From the NCBI RefSeq assembly GCF_000765475.1, contig NZ_JRHO01000014.1, forward strand, positions 885,687 to 949,686: a stretch of DNA of 64,000 nt, in the 5' to 3' direction. The notes under the pieces were generated by a model. The model was given only the letters and a program-made list of their open reading frames with translations, searched no databases and was not told the origin of the DNA. Positions 16,396 through 58,555 of the stretch are shown in pieces (position 1 is the first letter of the stretch; each line of letters opens with the position of its first letter). This DNA is from Methanococcoides methylutens. Its GTDB lineage: Archaea > Halobacteriota > Methanosarcinia > Methanosarcinales > Methanosarcinaceae. A program made the position numbers and the translations under genes.

Positions 16396-17646
16396 ATGTT
16401 TCGGTCTAAAAATTTGTTTGTGACGATAGTGGCGATAGCATTGATAGCTTTGATTTTCACATCGAGTGCATCTGCCAAAGAGGTCTTGTTCAACGGAAGC
16501 ATAGAGGAAGGAGACGGATACCAGATCAATAATATAGTGATCGATGTTGCCGAGGTGTTCGTAGATGCTGGCACCTGTGTTTTCAAAGTATATGACCAGG
16601 ATGAACTGATACATGACAAAATGCTTAACGAGGAAGACTCGTTCTCTTTTGACGTGGAAGAAGGAACTATAGAATTCACACTGGACGCCGTGATCGGAGG
16701 AATGGTGCCACGTGCAACAATGTCAATTACCATAGATGATGACGATGCAGTTTACCTGGATAAGATAGTTGATGGTGGCCAGGATAAGGCAGAATTCTCA
16801 GGTACACCTGAACTGAAGATCACAAAGGAAGTAAGTTCCTATAGCGTAGAACAGGGCGATGTTGTCACAATCAAAGTAGTGGTCAGGAACGACGGAGATG
16901 GAAGAGCTACTGAGGTTCGTTTTACTGATCCGAAGCCTGCCGGATTCATCTTGCAGGAGATTACCCTTGAAGAAGCAGGTCCAATGTCAATAGACAAATA
17001 TGAAGAAAGGACCATTTTCCTGTATAAACTCCAGGCAAATGAACCAGGTACATTTGAACTTAAACCCACTGTTGCAACATTCTCCAATGAAGCAGATCTG
17101 GACTTCCCGCAGGCTACCTCGAACAGACCTGTTGTTACGGTCACTGGCGAAGAAAAGGTCGCAGAACTTGAGTTCTCTACTTCAATGAACACCAGAAGCG
17201 TGCAAAGAGGTGATGATGTAGAGGTCACGATAAATATAAGGAACATCGGTGAAGCATCTGCAAATGGTGTCTTATTGAACATCCAGATCCCCGAAGGACT
17301 TGATTTTGAAGGCAGCAGCGATAACATTGAAATGATCAATAATGTACCAAAAGTATATATTGAGAACTTTGGCCTGAATCAGGAAAAAGAGATCAAATAC
17401 AATATCAAGCCAACTGAAGTGGGAACTTATACAATTACAACAGAATATTCATACCAGTATGACAGTGGCAGTTCCAAAGGACCAGAGGTTGTCAGCGGAG
17501 AGCTAACTACAAACGCACTCACTGTGGTAAAAGGTGAATATGATGTGCTTTTCGAACAGCCTTTGTATGTGTATGCCATCCCATTAGTGTTCATTCTTGC
17601 AATCGGAGGATGGGTCTTCTACCGTTCCAGGCAATACAAATACTAA
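16396..17646 (+). CDS. Secreted, membrane-anchored CARDB/DUF11-like surface protein
   Basis: The 416-residue protein has a signal peptide (FVTIVAIALIALIFTSSASA, cleavage near residue 28) and a C-terminal membrane segment (PLYVYAIPLVFILAIGGWVFY) followed by a basic tail, so it is anchored with the bulk outside. Two immunoglobulin-like modules at about residues 137-225 and 255-365 carry the typical opening VEQGDVVTIKVVVRNDGDGRA and VQRGDDVEVTINIRNIGEASA, matching the CARDB/DUF11 group. It is probably a cell-surface structural or adhesion protein. It lies 56 bases before the tubulin-like GTPase gene on the same strand. Confidence 0.75.
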   Translation: MFRSKNLFVTIVAIALIALIFTSSASAKEVLFNGSIEEGDGYQINNIVIDVAEVFVDAGTCVFKVYDQDELIHDKMLNEEDSFSFDVEEGTIEFTLDAVIGGMVPRATMSITIDDDDAVYLDKIVDGGQDKAEFSGTPELKITKEVSSYSVEQGDVVTIKVVVRNDGDGRATEVRFTDPKPAGFILQEITLEEAGPMSIDKYEERTIFLYKLQANEPGTFELKPTVATFSNEADLDFPQATSNRPVVTVTGEEKVAELEFSTSMNTRSVQRGDDVEVTINIRNIGEASANGVLLNIQIPEGLDFEGSSDNIEMINNVPKVYIENFGLNQEKEIKYNIKPTEVGTYTITTEYSYQYDSGSSKGPEVVSGELTTNALTVVKGEYDVLFEQPLYVYAIPLVFILAIGGWVFYRSRQYKY

Positions 17647-45468: not shown

Positions 45469-46035
45469 ATGAAGAACAAAACAAAAGCTAAGAAACTTAT
45501 ATTTGGAAGTATTTTTATATGTTTGGTGGTGTTAATTAGCATATCACCAGTTTCTGCATACACTTTGAATAACTTATGGTGGCAATATGAGAACGCTGCA
45601 TTTACAACAGATTCTTCAGTTCCAAGTTCGTGGTCATATTCTATAACACAAAGTCTAAGTGAGTGGAATGATGCTGATTCTGATTTTTACTTCTACCAGT
45701 TAGGTGGACAGAATAACAAATTCTTATATGATTCCCTTGGATCAACAACGACTACTTTAGCAACAACAAAGAAGTGGAAATACACCGACACTTCCTACTT
45801 ATCGAGATGTGAAATAACCTTTAATAGTGATAAGAGTTGGTCGACTACGGGAGAATCAACCAAATTTGATGTACAGAGCGCGGCTACTCATGAATTGGGA
45901 CACTGTCTGAGTCTGGGCCATTCGGGTGTTACTGATGCTACGATGTACGACACCATGGCAAAAGGTGAGACTAAGAAAAGAACTCTTCACGCAGACGATG
46001 AATGTGGAATAATAGCTATTTATGGAAACGCATGA
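45469..46035 (+). CDS. Secreted matrixin-like zinc metalloprotease
   Basis: The 188-residue protein has a signal peptide (LIFGSIFICLVVLISISPVSA, cleavage near residue 32) and the metzincin zinc site HELGHCLSLGH at residues 141-151, whose three histidines bind zinc and whose glutamate is catalytic. The following DATMYDTMAKGE supplies the methionine turn. It is a small secreted endopeptidase of the M10-like group. TATA-like CTATATAAG near 45415 and GAGGT near 45459 support expression. Its neighbour 10 bases on is a membrane-anchored partner. Confidence 0.85.
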   Translation: MKNKTKAKKLIFGSIFICLVVLISISPVSAYTLNNLWWQYENAAFTTDSSVPSSWSYSITQSLSEWNDADSDFYFYQLGGQNNKFLYDSLGSTTTTLATTKKWKYTDTSYLSRCEITFNSDKSWSTTGESTKFDVQSAATHELGHCLSLGHSGVTDATMYDTMAKGETKKRTLHADDECGIIAIYGNA

Positions 46036-46045
46036 GGGGATTATA

Positions 46046-46657
46046 ATGAACAATAAAAATACAGGAAGATATGTAATAATTGTAATTGGAATATTTTCCT
46101 TGGTGGTTATCGGCGCTTTGTTATTAGATAATACTTCTCAAACTGAATTGCCAAACAATGATGGGGCTGTAACTATTGAGTCTAGTGGATTACAAGAAGA
46201 AATAAGTTATGAAGAAATGGCAGAGAGATCGAATCTCATTATCATAGGTACAGTCAAAGAGATAGAGCCAAGTAAATGGAATACTCCCGATGGCAAAAGA
46301 CCAGGTGAATTGATAGAAGATTTCAAATCCAGTGATGAGATTTATACAGATGTAATTGTAACAGTAGATGACACTCTCAAAAATTCACATAATTCAAAAG
46401 AAATTGTTGTAAGATTACGTGGTGGAACTGTTGGCGAGGATACTATGATTATAGAGGATATACCTTCCTTCAAATCCGGTGAAAAAGTATTACTCTATTT
46501 GATCGAAGATACTTATCCACACACCAAAGCCATTGGTCCTGAACACTATGTGGTCATAGGATATGGTAAATTTACACTGACCGATGATGGTAAAGCCATT
46601 GGAGTACGTAAGTCTGTGGATTTGGAGGAACTGTTGAGCACAATTAATGTCACTTAA
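46046..46657 (+). CDS. Membrane-anchored protein paired with the protease
   Basis: The 203-residue protein has one N-terminal membrane anchor (IIVIGIFSLVVIGALLL) and a soluble domain beginning EISYEEMAERSNLIIIGTVKEIEPSKW, with beta strands IVVRLRGGTVGEDTM and GEKVLLYLIEDT. I do not recognise the family. ATG 46046 follows GAGGGG; it begins 10 bases after the protease stop. It may be an inhibitor, chaperone or substrate of the protease, which is inference from linkage. Confidence 0.6.
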   Translation: MNNKNTGRYVIIVIGIFSLVVIGALLLDNTSQTELPNNDGAVTIESSGLQEEISYEEMAERSNLIIIGTVKEIEPSKWNTPDGKRPGELIEDFKSSDEIYTDVIVTVDDTLKNSHNSKEIVVRLRGGTVGEDTMIIEDIPSFKSGEKVLLYLIEDTYPHTKAIGPEHYVVIGYGKFTLTDDGKAIGVRKSVDLEELLSTINVT

Positions 46658-48219: not shown

Positions 48220-51200
48220 TCATGTCACATTAATATCCATTCCCTTTGCCTCGGCCTTCACATCCGGGTTGTAGTATGAGTAGGCACTGCTCTCCTGCAC
48301 CATTGCCTTGACCGGGAACATGGCCCTCATCTGCAATGAGAAGTTCATTTCCTCACCGGCCATCATCTCATCGATATAGAGCACGACCTTGCGGCCTGCG
48401 ATCTCATAGCGCGTGATGGTGCCATCCTCCTTGAGCGCTTCAAGGCTTGCAGGTACCGGTGTGAATCCTGTTGGTACCGCAATATCAACTATCATCATAC
48501 CGCTGGACTCGACAACTCCCCGGATACCCGGCATTCCGTTGTACTTCAGGCGTACATCGACGTTCACGATGTCATCCACAACCACATCGGTTGAATCGTA
48601 TTCAACATCCAGCTCGATCTCCTCATGCTCGATGACTTCCGGAAGGATCACATTGAACTTCCTGACAAGCTGGTAGTTGAGCTCTCCGCTTCCCTCCAGA
48701 GTCATGTTGACACTTTCCACACCTTCAGGGACCTCGATGATGTTGACCACATCGTAGTTCTCGGATGTGACCCTGAGGCTCTTGAGCTCCTCACCATCTC
48801 CGGTCACGGTTATGGTAGCATCCACGTCCCTTCCTGCAGTTGCTGCAGCAGTCATCAGTGCCCTGAACGCCATGACGGTATCCTGGGTGCTTGAGAATCC
48901 TCCGTTGGAATTACGCTGTGCTGCGATCCATTTGAGGGATGAGCTTGCTGCAGGGTCATTGACCTCTATCAGGGCAAGGGTTGCATAGGCTGTGGTCTCA
49001 ACGTTCTTGCTTGAAACAGGATAGATGCCATAGCCACCGTATTCGTAAGGTTCCGGAACCACGTCATCATAACCCCAGTACATGCCGTTCTCATCTTCCT
49101 TTGCCATTGCAAGAAGCTTGGTTCTTGCCTCGTCTGCCCTCTCGCTCTCAAGCTTTTCAAGGGCAAGCGTTCCAATTGCAAGAGTGTATGGATCATCCTG
49201 GGCATCGAGGTTTTCTTCCAGATAACTCAGAGCACCGTTCATGACCTCATCAGTGGCATAGCCGTACTCATCCAGTGCAAGGGTGACGTATGCTGTCAGG
49301 GCATAGGTACCACTGAGACCACCCATCATGTCCTGGTGAATAACGAATCCCACGGATTCCCAGGAACCGTCCTCCTTCTGGTGTGAGATGATCCAGTCCG
49401 CTGCTTCACTGAGAATGTTCTCGTCAATGGTGGTAACATCCCTGGCACCGCTGAACTGTGAGAGTACGAACGCTGTAAGCCACAGGCTGCCTTCAGGATC
49501 GCTTTCACCGAATGCGGAGAAGGCACCGTCCGAATGCCTGAAGGTCAGCTCCCTCTGGTAGCCGGTGATTATGTAGGTCTGTGCCTTGGCCTCGATCTCC
49601 GGGTTCTGCTGTCCGGTAGCCTTGAGGTATCTCAGCACTTCCACATCGGTTGAGAACAGCATCATGTTCTGCTCACCACAGCCGTATGGCATGCCCAGAA
49701 GGTCATCCACACCGGTAATGGTCTGTGCCACAATGCTTGGTGTAAAGCTCACCAGCACCTTTTCGGAATCAGGCACGATGTCCACAGGCAGAGTGGTATC
49801 CAGTTCAACGGAACCCTCTTTGAGGATGCCATTGTCCACGATCTCCCTTGTGACACCTTCAGCCTCGACGATGACTGTCTTGCGAACAGCATCGGCCTTC
49901 TCTGTGGTCTGTCCTGTCAGCTCCACCTCCTGGACACCTACTTCCGTGGGCCTGATTGTAAAGCTTGCATGGGTCACACTGTTGGCGTCCACACTGACCT
50001 TTACCACATCCTCGCCCACCAGATCGAACCAGTCCGCACCGGAAAGTGTCAGCTGTACGTCCTGAGGTTTGTCAAGATAGTTGTAGACCTGCACCTGTAC
50101 AGGGAACTCTTCGCCACGAATTACGGCATATGGAAGGTCAGGGTCTATGAAGAAGTCCTGGAAAACTGTCAGGCCTGCTTCGGATATTCCAATACCTTCC
50201 GGACTGGAGGACACTGCATGCAGCCTCCAGGTGGTGATGGAATCCGGTGCGTTCAGGTCAAGGGAAGCCAGTCCGCTCTCATCCGTCATGATATCAGGCA
50301 TCCAGATCCATGTTTCAGGGAAGAACTGCCTTACCCTTTCCGGCTCTGCAAGTGGAGTTCCTGCACCTGAATCAGTTGGCTCCATAGGGGCTGCTGCAGG
50401 TTCTTCCATCATAACTTCTTCCTCAACCATTTCCATGTCATCCATTGCGAACATGCGGTCGACAAAGCCGCCGTCTTCCACTTCGGCCTGACCTTTAGGA
50501 ACATCAAGTCCGCCGGATGCCAGGACTATCAGTCCTGCATCATCAATCACATCACCTGCGGTCTCTTGATACCAGTAATAATTTGGATGAGCCTCTACCT
50601 GTGGCTCCATGAACCTGATCTCAAGCTCATCGAAGACCTGCTTCAGGTTGAGCCTGCCCTCGCTCAGTGCATAGACCGATTCATCGACTATGGAAAGGCC
50701 GATCATGGACTGAGTACCTGCATCCAGTTCCACTGAGACATTATCTCCGGGAGCTACCGTGTCCTTATCGAATCCCGATGACAGGTCCACTTGAGTGCTG
50801 AACTGCACATCGAATGGCAGGCTGTCGGCGGAAACCTCACTGTTCGGATTAATCATGTAGGCGACCACTTTTGCAGTGGGGCTCATCTGCGGTGTTACCG
50901 GGATGCTGATCTGTGGTTCATCGCTGGTAGCAGAATATACGGTCCTGCCGTTTGCGAACACATCATAGAACACCGTTCCCTTGTTGGTGGAATATACCTT
51001 GAAGACGATGTTCTCTCCAACCTCAGGTGTGCCCTCACTCACCTGGCTCAGGTGAAGGAAGCTCGCACTCGGGGAGTATACGGAATTCAGATGATCGGAA
51101 ACGTCGACGCCTTCCGAGCTGGCAGAGATGTCCACCTCAAGAGTATCCTCAGGTACTTCCAGTGCCACAAGAGCAACACCGTTCTCAGTGCTGACAATCT

Positions 51201-52431
51201 GCTTCTGCTCGTCCCGGTCATAGTTATCATCAAGGAAGCTCACAACAAGACTTACGTCCTTCTCCAGTGGTTCTCCTCCGGGGTCCTTTGTGACTATCAG
51301 GACCTGAAGCGGCATACCCGGCTTGATGGAATCGGACTCAGGTATCATCTGGAGAACAAGCTCTTCCTGCGCGATGGTAAGCAGTTCAGTGGTTTCCTCG
51401 CTATGCCCACCGGTGTCTGTTACGGTAACATTGAGCATAACACTGCCCTGTCCACCGGAACCAAAGGTACCTGCAACATACTCTGTGGGTGGAAGCTCGA
51501 ACTCCACAGAGCCTTCCTCAAGTGAGCCGCTGAAGGTAGCATACTCCTCCCACACACCCACATACTTCATGGCCTCGATCTCGACGTCACCTTCGACATC
51601 CTTTCCAAAGAAGTACTGTGCAGAGACCGTTCCTGTGATGGGGTCATCCACAAGGAACCAGCTCTTCTCGGTTGAAGCTTCCACATCGAACTTCGGAAGC
51701 ACATATTTCTCCACCCTGATGTCCACCTGTGACATGGATGAGCCTGAAGTTGCCTTTATTTTCCAGGTACCAAGGTTCAGCTCGGAGGCCAGCGGCAGGT
51801 CAAAATAGGCAACACCGTACTCGTTGGTGGTAAGATCATCCTTGAAGACCTTCACTCCCTTGGCATCCGATATCTCCACGGTGGTGTTCTGGACAACAGG
51901 AACAAGGTTGTTGTTCAAAGAAAGAAGCCTCACATGGATGGTCTGCCCGGGCTTGTAGATCGGCTTATCGGTCTCTATGAAGATAGGATTATTCTGCACG
52001 ACCTTTATGGTCGTCTCAAAGCCGGATTCCGCACCCACCGGAGTTGCAGTAAGCGTGTAACTGCCTTCCTCGACCTCCGGGACATCGAACTTCGCAACCG
52101 AGTTACCGGAATCTGATGTAGCGGCCTTTACCAGCGGGACCACCTCACCTGAAGCACTGGTAAGCGTGTACTCAACACAACGGCTCACAGGAGCATCACC
52201 AAGGAAGGACGACATGGTGACAGAGGTCTCCCCACCCGAGAAGAATGCCTTCGGGACAAGTATCAGGTACTCATCCTCTGAGGAATAGGTACCTCCTTCT
52301 TCACAGGACAAAGCCTCGTTGGCTGGTGGATAATCCACATCCTCATCCTGGCCTATACAGCCTGCCATCACAATACATGACAGCAGGAACAATACGATGA
52401 ACGATTTTTGCACAATTGCTACAGATCTCAT
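48220..52431 (-). CDS. Alpha-2-macroglobulin family lipoprotein with complement-type thioester
   Basis: The 1403-residue protein has a lipobox (CIVMAGC, cysteine at residue 25), so it is anchored outside the membrane. Macroglobulin repeats follow, including IFIETDKPIYKPGQTIHVRLL near 152, an acidic methionine-rich segment at about 665-695 (MVEEEVMMEEPAAAPMEP) in the bait position, and FFPETWIWMPDI with PDSITTWRLHAVSSSPEGIGISE, the eukaryotic-type text. The thioester motif is GCGEQ with Cys918 and Gln921. His1032 within VIHQDMMGG, 114 residues later, matches the catalytic histidine context of complement C3. The terpenoid-like helical domain continues to about 1170, then a receptor-like beta domain. 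Expected role: covalent trapping of proteases or other targets at the surface. Confidence 0.9.
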   Translation of the reverse strand: MRSVAIVQKSFIVLFLLSCIVMAGCIGQDEDVDYPPANEALSCEEGGTYSSEDEYLILVPKAFFSGGETSVTMSSFLGDAPVSRCVEYTLTSASGEVVPLVKAATSDSGNSVAKFDVPEVEEGSYTLTATPVGAESGFETTIKVVQNNPIFIETDKPIYKPGQTIHVRLLSLNNNLVPVVQNTTVEISDAKGVKVFKDDLTTNEYGVAYFDLPLASELNLGTWKIKATSGSSMSQVDIRVEKYVLPKFDVEASTEKSWFLVDDPITGTVSAQYFFGKDVEGDVEIEAMKYVGVWEEYATFSGSLEEGSVEFELPPTEYVAGTFGSGGQGSVMLNVTVTDTGGHSEETTELLTIAQEELVLQMIPESDSIKPGMPLQVLIVTKDPGGEPLEKDVSLVVSFLDDNYDRDEQKQIVSTENGVALVALEVPEDTLEVDISASSEGVDVSDHLNSVYSPSASFLHLSQVSEGTPEVGENIVFKVYSTNKGTVFYDVFANGRTVYSATSDEPQISIPVTPQMSPTAKVVAYMINPNSEVSADSLPFDVQFSTQVDLSSGFDKDTVAPGDNVSVELDAGTQSMIGLSIVDESVYALSEGRLNLKQVFDELEIRFMEPQVEAHPNYYWYQETAGDVIDDAGLIVLASGGLDVPKGQAEVEDGGFVDRMFAMDDMEMVEEEVMMEEPAAAPMEPTDSGAGTPLAEPERVRQFFPETWIWMPDIMTDESGLASLDLNAPDSITTWRLHAVSSSPEGIGISEAGLTVFQDFFIDPDLPYAVIRGEEFPVQVQVYNYLDKPQDVQLTLSGADWFDLVGEDVVKVSVDANSVTHASFTIRPTEVGVQEVELTGQTTEKADAVRKTVIVEAEGVTREIVDNGILKEGSVELDTTLPVDIVPDSEKVLVSFTPSIVAQTITGVDDLLGMPYGCGEQNMMLFSTDVEVLRYLKATGQQNPEIEAKAQTYIITGYQRELTFRHSDGAFSAFGESDPEGSLWLTAFVLSQFSGARDVTTIDENILSEAADWIISHQKEDGSWESVGFVIHQDMMGGLSGTYALTAYVTLALDEYGYATDEVMNGALSYLEENLDAQDDPYTLAIGTLALEKLESERADEARTKLLAMAKEDENGMYWGYDDVVPEPYEYGGYGIYPVSSKNVETTAYATLALIEVNDPAASSSLKWIAAQRNSNGGFSSTQDTVMAFRALMTAAATAGRDVDATITVTGDGEELKSLRVTSENYDVVNIIEVPEGVESVNMTLEGSGELNYQLVRKFNVILPEVIEHEEIELDVEYDSTDVVVDDIVNVDVRLKYNGMPGIRGVVESSGMMIVDIAVPTGFTPVPASLEALKEDGTITRYEIAGRKVVLYIDEMMAGEEMNFSLQMRAMFPVKAMVQESSAYSYYNPDVKAEAKGMDINVT

Positions 52432-56918: not shown

Positions 56919-57116
56919 TCATTCTTCATCAAAAATAAATACATCCTCTATCTTTGAATCAAAAACCTTTGCAATGGTATAGGCTAATTTCAGAGAAGGG
57001 TTGTACTTTCCCTTTTCCAGAAACAGGATCGTTTCTCTCCTGACCCCGACCCTTTTCGCAAGCTCGTCCTGCGTAAGATTATATCTGGCCCGGAGTTCTT
57101 TGATTCTGGTTTTCAT
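56919..57116 (-). CDS. XRE-family HTH regulator
   Basis: The 65-residue protein is a minimal Cro/C1-type helix-turn-helix: [60 protein letters not shown]. This small HTH is typical of those linked to membrane proteins in archaea. Its ATG overlaps the stop of the DUF2178 gene (ATGA at 57113-57116), so it is the third gene of a coupled cassette and probably autoregulates it. Confidence 0.88.
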
Positions 57117-57520
57117 GGATCTGTCTCATAGCCTTTCTTATCATAATACCATCTCAGAATATTCCATGAACCCAACGCGATAATGGCCAAAGGCCCACTC
57201 ACATCCTTGTAAAGTATTTCGGTGGACCAGTTTGCCATTGTCAGGATTCCCAGACACATTACAAGTATCAAGAAGGCATGGTACCCTGCTTTTTCATTAG
57301 TTCTTACAGTCCTTTCATCACGGATAAAGTATTCCCGGGGTTTTGTAGCGGTGTACAGGAATATTACCGTGAGCATTAAACCCATAAAAATCAATGATGC
57401 ACCGGCCCCGTAGAACTGGAATTGCCACAGAACCAGACCCAACAGCAGCATTCCCAGAATTGTAGCCAAACCCCGCAGAGTGTGTTTGTCTTTTCTTATT
57501 TTCATAGAACTTACCCTCAA
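57113..57520 (-). CDS. DUF2178-type membrane protein
   Basis: The 135-residue protein has four helices and a basic N-terminus ([27 protein letters not shown]). [29 protein letters not shown] carries the motif seen in DUF2178, a family of archaeal membrane proteins of unknown role. It overlaps the upstream DUF2178 gene and the downstream HTH gene by four bases at each end. Confidence 0.7.
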
Positions 57521-57846
57521 ATTTCTTTTGAACTGTAGTGGCGACGGAAAGTTATCAGCGATATCATTAAGGTAAAAAATAATATTGATATAGATTGACC
57601 TGTTTCTATTTTGAACAACTCAAAAAGATCTCCCCAGAGAATCACAGCCATTGCCAATAGTAGCACAATAATCGAGCTATTTGCAGCTTTTCCTGCCACC
57701 TTCTCTGTTCTTTCATCCTGTTCAGGTTCTCCAGATTTTTTACGCCCCCGGTTAACAATTAAAAATCCTATCGTAACTCCAACGATTACTCCTATAAAGC
57801 TGATTATATCCACTGCCATTATATTTTCTCCATATGTTTTAGGCAA
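57517..57846 (-). CDS. DUF2178 membrane protein, single repeat
   Basis: The 109-residue protein has helices at about 10-30, 55-78 and 85-100, and the DUF2178 core EPEQDERTEKVAGKAANSSIIVLLLAMAVILWGDLFELFKIETGQSISILFF. It closely resembles the second half of the protein at 58004-58555, so the genes arose by duplication. It is coupled to its downstream neighbour. Confidence 0.7.
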   Translation of the reverse strand: MPKTYGENIMAVDIISFIGVIVGVTIGFLIVNRGRKKSGEPEQDERTEKVAGKAANSSIIVLLLAMAVILWGDLFELFKIETGQSISILFFTLMISLITFRRHYSSKEI

Positions 57847-58003
57847 TTCAAATTTAGTATCAGAGAGATTTTACAAAACAGAAGTGCATTCATATTTTTA
57901 TAAAGTCCTTTGGTGAATCGATCTATTTTTGTTAGGATTGGAAGGCACATTGCCAGCTCCGGAAAGTATGCTTTGATTCCCTGATCTGCATCCAGATCTC
58001 TCC

Positions 58004-58555
58004 TTAAAATTCCTTTGAATTGTAGTAGGTGACAAAGCCCAGCATTGATAGCATCAAAACCGGAAACAGTATTGCCAGCGTTTCGCGTGTTTCCAGTTTG
58101 AACAAACCAAAAATATCGCCCCAGAGAATTATAGCACATGCAGCCATCAGCACAACAATCGTGGATTTTGCAGCTTTTCCTGTCACTTTTTCTGTACGCT
58201 CATCATGTTCAGGCTCTCCGGTTTTTTTTAGCCTGAAATCGTAAATAGAGGACATTAAAGCTCCAGTAATCAGTAAAACCGGAAATATTATTGCCAGCGC
58301 TTCATGTGTTTCTGATTTGAACAAACCTAAAGTGTCTCCAGAGATTATCATATCCCAGAGAATCAAAGCAGATAGCATCATTAACACAGCAATCGTACAT
58401 ATTACGACTATTCCTCTCACTTTTTCTGTCCTTGTCCTTCCACCATGCTCATAATATCCGGTTCTTTTACGCCAGATGCTGTATATGGAGTGAACCATAA
58501 TTCCTATTGAAATTCCAATAATTCCCGGCACAAAGCTGACTATATCCGCTTCCAT
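58004..58555 (-). CDS. DUF2178 membrane protein with two internal repeats
   Basis: The 183-residue protein contains two copies of the DUF2178 unit: GRTRTEKVRGIVVICTIAVLMML through ETHEALAIIFPVLL, and HDERTEKVTGKAAKSTIVVLMAAC through ETRETLAILFPVLM. Each copy has two helices, so there are about five in all. It is separated by 157 bases from the next DUF2178 gene, whose unit it resembles, pointing to recent tandem duplication. Function is unknown. Confidence 0.7.
   Translation of the reverse strand: MEADIVSFVPGIIGISIGIMVHSIYSIWRKRTGYYEHGGRTRTEKVRGIVVICTIAVLMMLSALILWDMIISGDTLGLFKSETHEALAIIFPVLLITGALMSSIYDFRLKKTGEPEHDERTEKVTGKAAKSTIVVLMAACAIILWGDIFGLFKLETRETLAILFPVLMLSMLGFVTYYNSKEF

What the first reader, a model, noticed from the sequence alone, without database searches (positions are those of the whole stretch)
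48220..52431. Complement-like alpha-2-macroglobulin in a methanogen
The archaeal lipoprotein carries GCGEQ (Cys918, Gln921) and, 114 residues on, VIHQDMMGG with His1032. As I recall, human complement C3 reads VIHQEMIGG at its catalytic histidine, about 116 residues after the thioester cysteine. The surrounding text (FFPETWIWMPDI, PDSITTWRLHA, DLPYAVIRGEEF) is also of the metazoan kind. This predicts a fast, hydroxyl-reactive thioester that labels nearby surfaces, rather than only trapping proteases.
Basis: partly seen in the sequence, partly recalled or inferred. Interest (0 to 1): 0.82.

Follow-up and report, generated by a model that had tools for sequence, protein, structure and literature searches.

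The report
Animal-type macroglobulin protease trap in methanogens
This methane-producing microbe carries on its surface a large protein built like animal alpha-2-macroglobulin, most likely a spring-loaded trap that chemically glues itself to attacking proteases; the complement-like histidine is real, but ordinary protease inhibitors of this family have it too.

Summary
Window 48220-52431 (-) encodes a 1403-aa lipoprotein of the alpha-2-macroglobulin (A2M) superfamily. Cys918, Gln921 and His1032 align with the thioester and catalytic His of human C3 (spacing 114 here, 116 in C3) and are invariant in 31 archaeal orthologues. The interpretation "complement-like" does not hold. The same His is in A2ML1, CD109, TEP1 and C4B, so it marks hydroxyl-reactive chemistry, not complement; human A2ML1 has it and is a protease inhibitor. 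The protein scores much higher against A2M, A2ML1 and CD109 than against C3/C4, and has no anaphylatoxin or C345C domain. Its bait region is disordered and hypervariable, with nearly all indels: the mark of a protease trap. The gene is in 11/11 genomes of its genus, at a conserved place near mutS, and in about a third of the order. Relatives in Archaeoglobi-like sulfate reducers share the animal-type architecture. In thioester-domain trees the archaeal proteins lie outside the animal clade. A 2021 paper already reported such homologues in a Methanolobus, read as bacterial acquisitions; close bacterial relatives could not be sampled, so the origin stays open. Verdict: new member of a known kind, with an interesting evolutionary position.

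The parts
48220..52431 (-). alpha-2-macroglobulin-type lipoprotein gene, 1403 aa (P0001)
52357..52368 (-). lipobox MAGC; Cys25 is the predicted lipid-anchored residue
   Evidence: kept in the orthologues of families f1 and f3; family f2 has a hydrophobic N-terminal anchor instead
50614..52281 (-). MG1 to first part of MG6 (residues 51-606), macroglobulin ring; Pfam MG2, MG3, MG4, A2M_BRD
50332..50613 (-). bait region (residues 607-700): acidic, predicted disordered, hypervariable with indels
49867..50331 (-). end of MG6 and MG7 (residues 701-855), with FFPETWIWMPD and DLPYAVIRGEEF; Pfam A2M
48847..49716 (-). thioester domain (residues 906-1195), Pfam TED_complement; model matches C3d at 2.5 A over 275 residues
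49669..49683 (-). GCGEQ: Cys918-Gln921 internal thioester site
49318..49344 (-). VIHQDMMGG with catalytic His1032
48223..48531 (-). MG8 / A2M_recep domain (residues 1301-1403), with AYSYYNP that probably shields the thioester
   Evidence: shielding is inferred from the role of MG8 in family structures (PMC9156758)

Best explanation
A membrane-anchored, single-chain, animal-type alpha-2-macroglobulin that acts as a covalent protease trap at the archaeal cell surface. Secreted and lipid-anchored through Cys25, it holds a buried Cys918-Gln921 thioester at the TED/MG8 interface. A protease that cuts the exposed, variable bait region (607-700) triggers a rearrangement of the MG7-CUB-TED-MG8 half and exposes the thioester. 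His1032 attacks it to form an acyl-imidazole that reacts quickly with amines or hydroxyls of the nearest protein, normally the cutting protease, which is tied down and sterically blocked, as in A2ML1. Shown here: domain make-up, intact catalytic residues, predicted fold, anchor, conservation, bait hypervariability. Inferred: thioester formation, triggering, the target and the protective role.
For: Full A2M domain set, with the animal-type MG3, MG4 and A2M_recep models. Best solved relatives are A2M 416, A2ML1 391 and CD109 382 bits, against C3 281; thioester domain alone CD109 178, A2M 173, A2ML1 164, C4 117, C3 111. AlphaFold model of residues 700-1403 matches native C3, TEP1, A2M and A2ML1 at Z 39-41 and C3d at 2.5 A. 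Catalytic residues invariant in 31 orthologues. Bait region: 50% pairwise identity against about 88% on both sides in genus g4, 16.8 indel positions per pair against 0-1 elsewhere, dN/dS 0.18-0.24 against 0.05-0.07; modelled as disordered. Lipobox or hydrophobic anchor kept. A2ML1, a monomer with the same His, inhibits proteases only through covalent conjugation, by amine or hydroxyl groups (PMC9156758).
Against: No biochemistry: thioester formation, bait cleavage and inhibition are untested for any archaeal member in the papers I could search. Bait hypervariability could also reflect relaxed constraint in a linker. The own genome carries a monomethylamine methyltransferase, so the organism probably grows on the amine that opens A2M thioesters. 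No protease target is known.
Confidence: 0.75

Rival explanations
1. Complement- or TEP-like opsonin: after cleavage by a dedicated own convertase, the hydroxyl-reactive thioester labels sugars on nearby cells, viruses or the cell's own S-layer.
For: His aligned with C3 and TEP1; native-state fold like C3 and TEP1; hydroxyl reactivity is plausible.
Against: No anaphylatoxin or C345C domain; no conserved convertase or receptor gene beside it, only unrelated neighbours; lipid-anchored, so it cannot diffuse far; bait evolves fast, whereas a dedicated cleavage site should be conserved; thioester-domain trees disfavour grouping with C3/C4 (AU p 0.005-0.026).
Confidence: 0.1
2. A2M-like scaffold turned to another use in the cell envelope (adhesion, S-layer tethering, chaperoning), with the thioester used for constitutive covalent anchoring.
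For: Single-copy gene in a stable genomic place, and methylamine would open an unprotected thioester.
Against: A hypervariable bait in the exact place of the A2M bait region and strict retention of Cys, Gln and His fit trapping better.
Confidence: 0.12
3. Recent gene transfer from an animal explains the metazoan look.
For: High similarity to animal A2M proteins.
Against: Animals form one group (97/92) that excludes all archaeal proteins; archaeal diversity spans three families of the order plus two families of dsrA-positive, mcrA-negative relatives; shared synteny with mutS across the family; AU p 0.028-0.048 against archaea inside animals.
Confidence: 0.04

Closest known systems
Human A2ML1 (monomeric A2M-family protease inhibitor)
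   Same: Same domain order, GCGEQ plus catalytic His, single chain; PDB match 391 bits. It inhibits through covalent conjugation (PMC9156758).
   Different: Archaeal protein is lipid-anchored, has an acidic bait region of other sequence, and only Cys918 beyond residue 85; no activity shown.
CD109 (membrane-anchored A2M-family protein)
   Same: Best match of the thioester domain (178 bits, 37% identity), VIHSELQGG at the His, membrane-anchored.
   Different: Anchor is an N-terminal lipid, not a C-terminal GPI anchor (anchor type of CD109 from general knowledge).
Archaeal A2M homologues of Makarova et al. 2021 (e.g. WP_015053894.1, Methanolobus psychrophilus; PMC8416519)
   Same: Almost certainly the same family: Methanosarcinales A2M with intact CxEQ.
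   Different: That paper read them as acquired from bacteria; the passages read do not treat the His, the bait variability or the animal-type architecture.
Bacterial type-I A2M (E. coli YfhM/ECAM, Salmonella)
   Same: Lipoprotein protease trap with a thioester.
Complement C3/C4
   Same: Thioester fold, GCGEQ and His (C3, C4B).
   Different: No anaphylatoxin, no C345C, no basic chain-processing site here; lower similarity than A2M/CD109.

Membership tests
A2M superfamily (animal-type architecture) | MG1-MG6 with bait insert, MG7, CUB-TED, MG8 | tested here: met
   Pfam MG2, MG3, MG4, A2M_BRD, A2M, TED_complement, A2M_recep all over cut-off; fold match of the C-terminal half
A2M superfamily (animal-type architecture) | CGEQ thioester motif | tested here: met
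   GCGEQ 917-921, invariant in 31 orthologues
A2M superfamily (animal-type architecture) | internal thioester actually formed | not testable with these tools
   needs purified protein
A2M protease inhibitors | variable, exposed bait region inserted in MG6 | tested here: met
A2M protease inhibitors | inhibition of a protease after bait cleavage | not testable with these tools
   no activity data
Complement C3/C4/C5 | anaphylatoxin (ANATO) domain in the MG6 insert | tested here: not met
   no Pfam match; insert modelled as disordered; no cysteine between 85 and 918
Complement C3/C4/C5 | C-terminal C345C/NTR domain | tested here: not met
   protein ends with MG8; no Pfam match
Complement C3/C4/C5 | basic tetrapeptide for chain processing | tested here: not met
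   no run of three or more K/R
Hydroxyl-reactive thioester proteins (C3, C4B, TEP1, A2ML1, CD109 residue pattern) | His about 110-116 residues after the thioester Cys | tested here: met
   His1032, same column
Bacterial type-I A2M (ECAM-like) | bacterial MG domain models (bMG5, bMG10) | tested here: not met
   none in P0001; control Meiothermus A2M hits bMG5 and bMG10 but not MG3/MG4/A2M_recep
Bacterial animal-type A2M (GCGEQ) | archaeal proteins nested among bacterial ones in a tree | not tested
   no such bacterial sequences reachable

The most novel reading that the evidence does not exclude
The complete animal-type macroglobulin, including the thioester plus catalytic His on which complement depends, existed in prokaryotes (archaea such as Methanosarcinales and Archaeoglobi-like lineages, perhaps with bacteria) before animals, and animal A2M, CD109, TEP and complement C3/C4 descend from such a gene, so that C3-type chemistry began as an anchored protease trap.
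Probability: 0.25. Interest if true: 0.75.

Novelty: new member of a known kind. Interest (0 to 1): 0.42.

Why it matters
It moves attention from "complement in a methanogen" to a testable point: the hydroxyl-reactive thioester with its His is not specific to complement and is kept in free-living archaea. It offers simple anchored models of the A2M family, and a puzzle: an external thioester in cells that probably feed on methylamine, the reagent used to destroy such thioesters.

Tried and rejected
Viral contigs gave no relative with two different alignments; phages none. Plasmids gave only distant Deinococcota and Gemmatimonadota proteins of another type, none with the Archaeoglobi-like query. 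The one genome-contig scan returned only archaeal relatives, and the genome search cannot be centred on a plasmid locus, so bacterial GCGEQ proteins could not be added to the tree. An operon or partner-gene reading was rejected: neighbours differ between genera apart from mutS, mutL and an ABC-transporter ATPase cluster several kb away. The matrixin protease gene 2.2 kb away was considered as a cognate protease and rejected as a conserved partner: no relative in any fetched locus. Animal sequences for the tree were copied from printed HMMER alignments; the C3 fragment was first recalled and then found identical to the PDB chain. TEP1 and C4B alignments were drawn out with hybrid queries; only the database rows were used.

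Full report
What is there. The frame at 48220-52431 on the minus strand encodes 1403 residues. The genome is a 2.5-Mb methanogen (mcrA and mtmB present); the nearest named relative is Methanococcoides vulcani, 91% identical in this protein, so Methanococcoides is the likely genus. Pfam finds MG2, MG3, MG4, the bait-region domain, A2M, TED_complement and A2M_recep, all over their cut-offs. The lipobox MAGC predicts a lipid anchor. The genome has one such gene.

The motif. Human C3 was checked against the PDB chain: VIHQEMIGG, 116 residues after the cysteine; here 114. In a nine-protein alignment His1032 shares its column with the His of C3, C4B, CD109, A2ML1 and TEP1; only human A2M has Asn. 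All 31 aligned archaeal orthologues keep G, C, G, E, Q and the His.

Why the His does not mean complement. It occurs on both sides of the family. A2ML1, a monomeric inhibitor, forms an acyl-imidazole through that His, reacts with amines and hydroxyls, and needs the covalent bond to inhibit proteases (PMC9156758). TEP1 has the His too (PMC5489563). The prediction of hydroxyl reactivity is therefore sound as inference; the step from there to surface labelling is not.

Overall likeness. Whole protein: A2M 416 bits, A2ML1 391, CD109 382, C3 281. Thioester domain alone: CD109 178, A2M 173, A2ML1 164, TEP1 132, C4 about 117, C3 about 111. Identity of the domain is 36-39% to every animal protein, so the ranking partly reflects that C3 and C4 evolve fast. 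Complement marks are missing: no ANATO, no C345C, no basic processing site, no cysteine between residues 85 and 918.

Structure. A model of residues 700-1403 from 28 archaeal sequences (mean pLDDT 75) matches native C3, TEP1, A2M and A2ML1 at Z 39-41, and isolated C3d at 2.5 A over 275 residues. These Z values are tied and do not favour C3 over A2M. A second model, residues 358-860 (mean pLDDT 66), has the stretch that corresponds to about 586-710 below pLDDT 50, with no folded domain there; its best matches are A2M-family proteins but with low TM-scores.

The bait region. Within the genus and within the next genus (g4, probably Methanolobus, inferred), residues 607-700 are, apart from the signal peptide and N-terminal linker, the least conserved part: 71% and 50% pairwise identity against roughly 79-94% for most other domains (MG4 is also low, 79% and 62%), with nearly all indels. 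dN/dS is 0.18 and 0.24 against 0.05-0.07 elsewhere. That is relaxed or diversifying evolution, not proof of positive selection. It fits a bait facing changing proteases and speaks against one dedicated cleavage site.

Distribution and context. Found in 11 of 11 genomes of the genus and in 70 of 186 of the order at E 0.001, a few of these fragments or weak. mutS lies downstream in most family loci, so the gene is old in the family; no partner gene is conserved immediately beside it. Relatives with the same animal-type domain set occur in three genomes of two other families of the phylum that carry dsrA and lack mcrA, hence Archaeoglobi-like sulfate reducers. Two of these three lie on short contigs of draft genomes (L083, L084), so contamination is not excluded there; L085 lies on a 72-kb contig of a 99% complete genome.

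Trees. With distant CxEQ proteins as outgroup, animals are one group (97/92) and the archaeal proteins lie outside; the dsrA-bearing f9 pair is their nearest neighbour (96/95). Without outgroup, archaea and animals are two sides of one branch (92/91). Holding archaea with C3/C4 is rejected (AU p 0.005 and 0.026); holding them with CD109/A2M/A2ML1/TEP1 to the exclusion of C3/C4 is disfavoured (0.028, 0.048); one archaeal clade is not rejected (0.091). The groups were partly chosen after seeing the first tree, the domain gives under 300 columns, and the outgroup is far away, so the root is weak. Bacterial GCGEQ proteins, which I know from general knowledge to exist, are absent from the sample; this is the main gap.

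Literature. Makarova and others (2021, PMC8416519) listed A2M homologues with intact CxEQ in archaea, including Methanolobus psychrophilus WP_015053894.1, and judged several from Methanomicrobia to be acquired from bacteria. My data add that these proteins are of animal type in their domain models, unlike the bacterial Meiothermus control with bMG5 and bMG10 and unlike E. coli YfhM. This does not exclude a bacterial donor with animal-type architecture.

Mechanism. Best reading: an anchored covalent protease trap, A2ML1- or CD109-like. An odd point is diet: the genome has a monomethylamine methyltransferase, and methylamine opens these thioesters (PMC3328433; PMC12939704). Either natural concentrations are low, the site is well shielded, or the trap is lost when methylamine is abundant. 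This is testable.

Noticed in passing
45469-46035 (+): Small secreted matrixin-type metalloprotease (PF00413) with HELGHCLSLGH, 2.2 kb from the A2M gene; no relative found beside A2M in other genomes.
   Followed up: partly
46022-46657 (+): Secreted protein without Pfam match; relatives lie near the A2M gene in six genomes of another genus, several copies in one, some as lipoproteins.
   Followed up: partly
G000:C5:118412-119761 (own genome, outside the window): Monomethylamine methyltransferase (MtmB) gene, plus further partial matches; the organism probably uses methylamine, the classic thioester-opening reagent.
   Followed up: partly
L085:6957-10802 (-): Animal-type A2M with GFIHHRDMMGG in a dsrA-positive, mcrA-negative archaeon; its thioester domain (with that of L084) is the nearest archaeal one to the animal clade.
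   Followed up: partly
L089:4245-9449 (+): A second, very different archaeal TED protein type (GCPEQ) with a cohesin domain and no A2M macroglobulin domains found by Pfam.
   Followed up: no
57113-58555 (-): Two neighbouring DUF2178-like membrane proteins, one of them just under the family's cut-off.
   Followed up: no
16396-17646 (+): Protein with DUF11 repeats and a marginal match to the bacterial A2M MG10 model.
   Followed up: no
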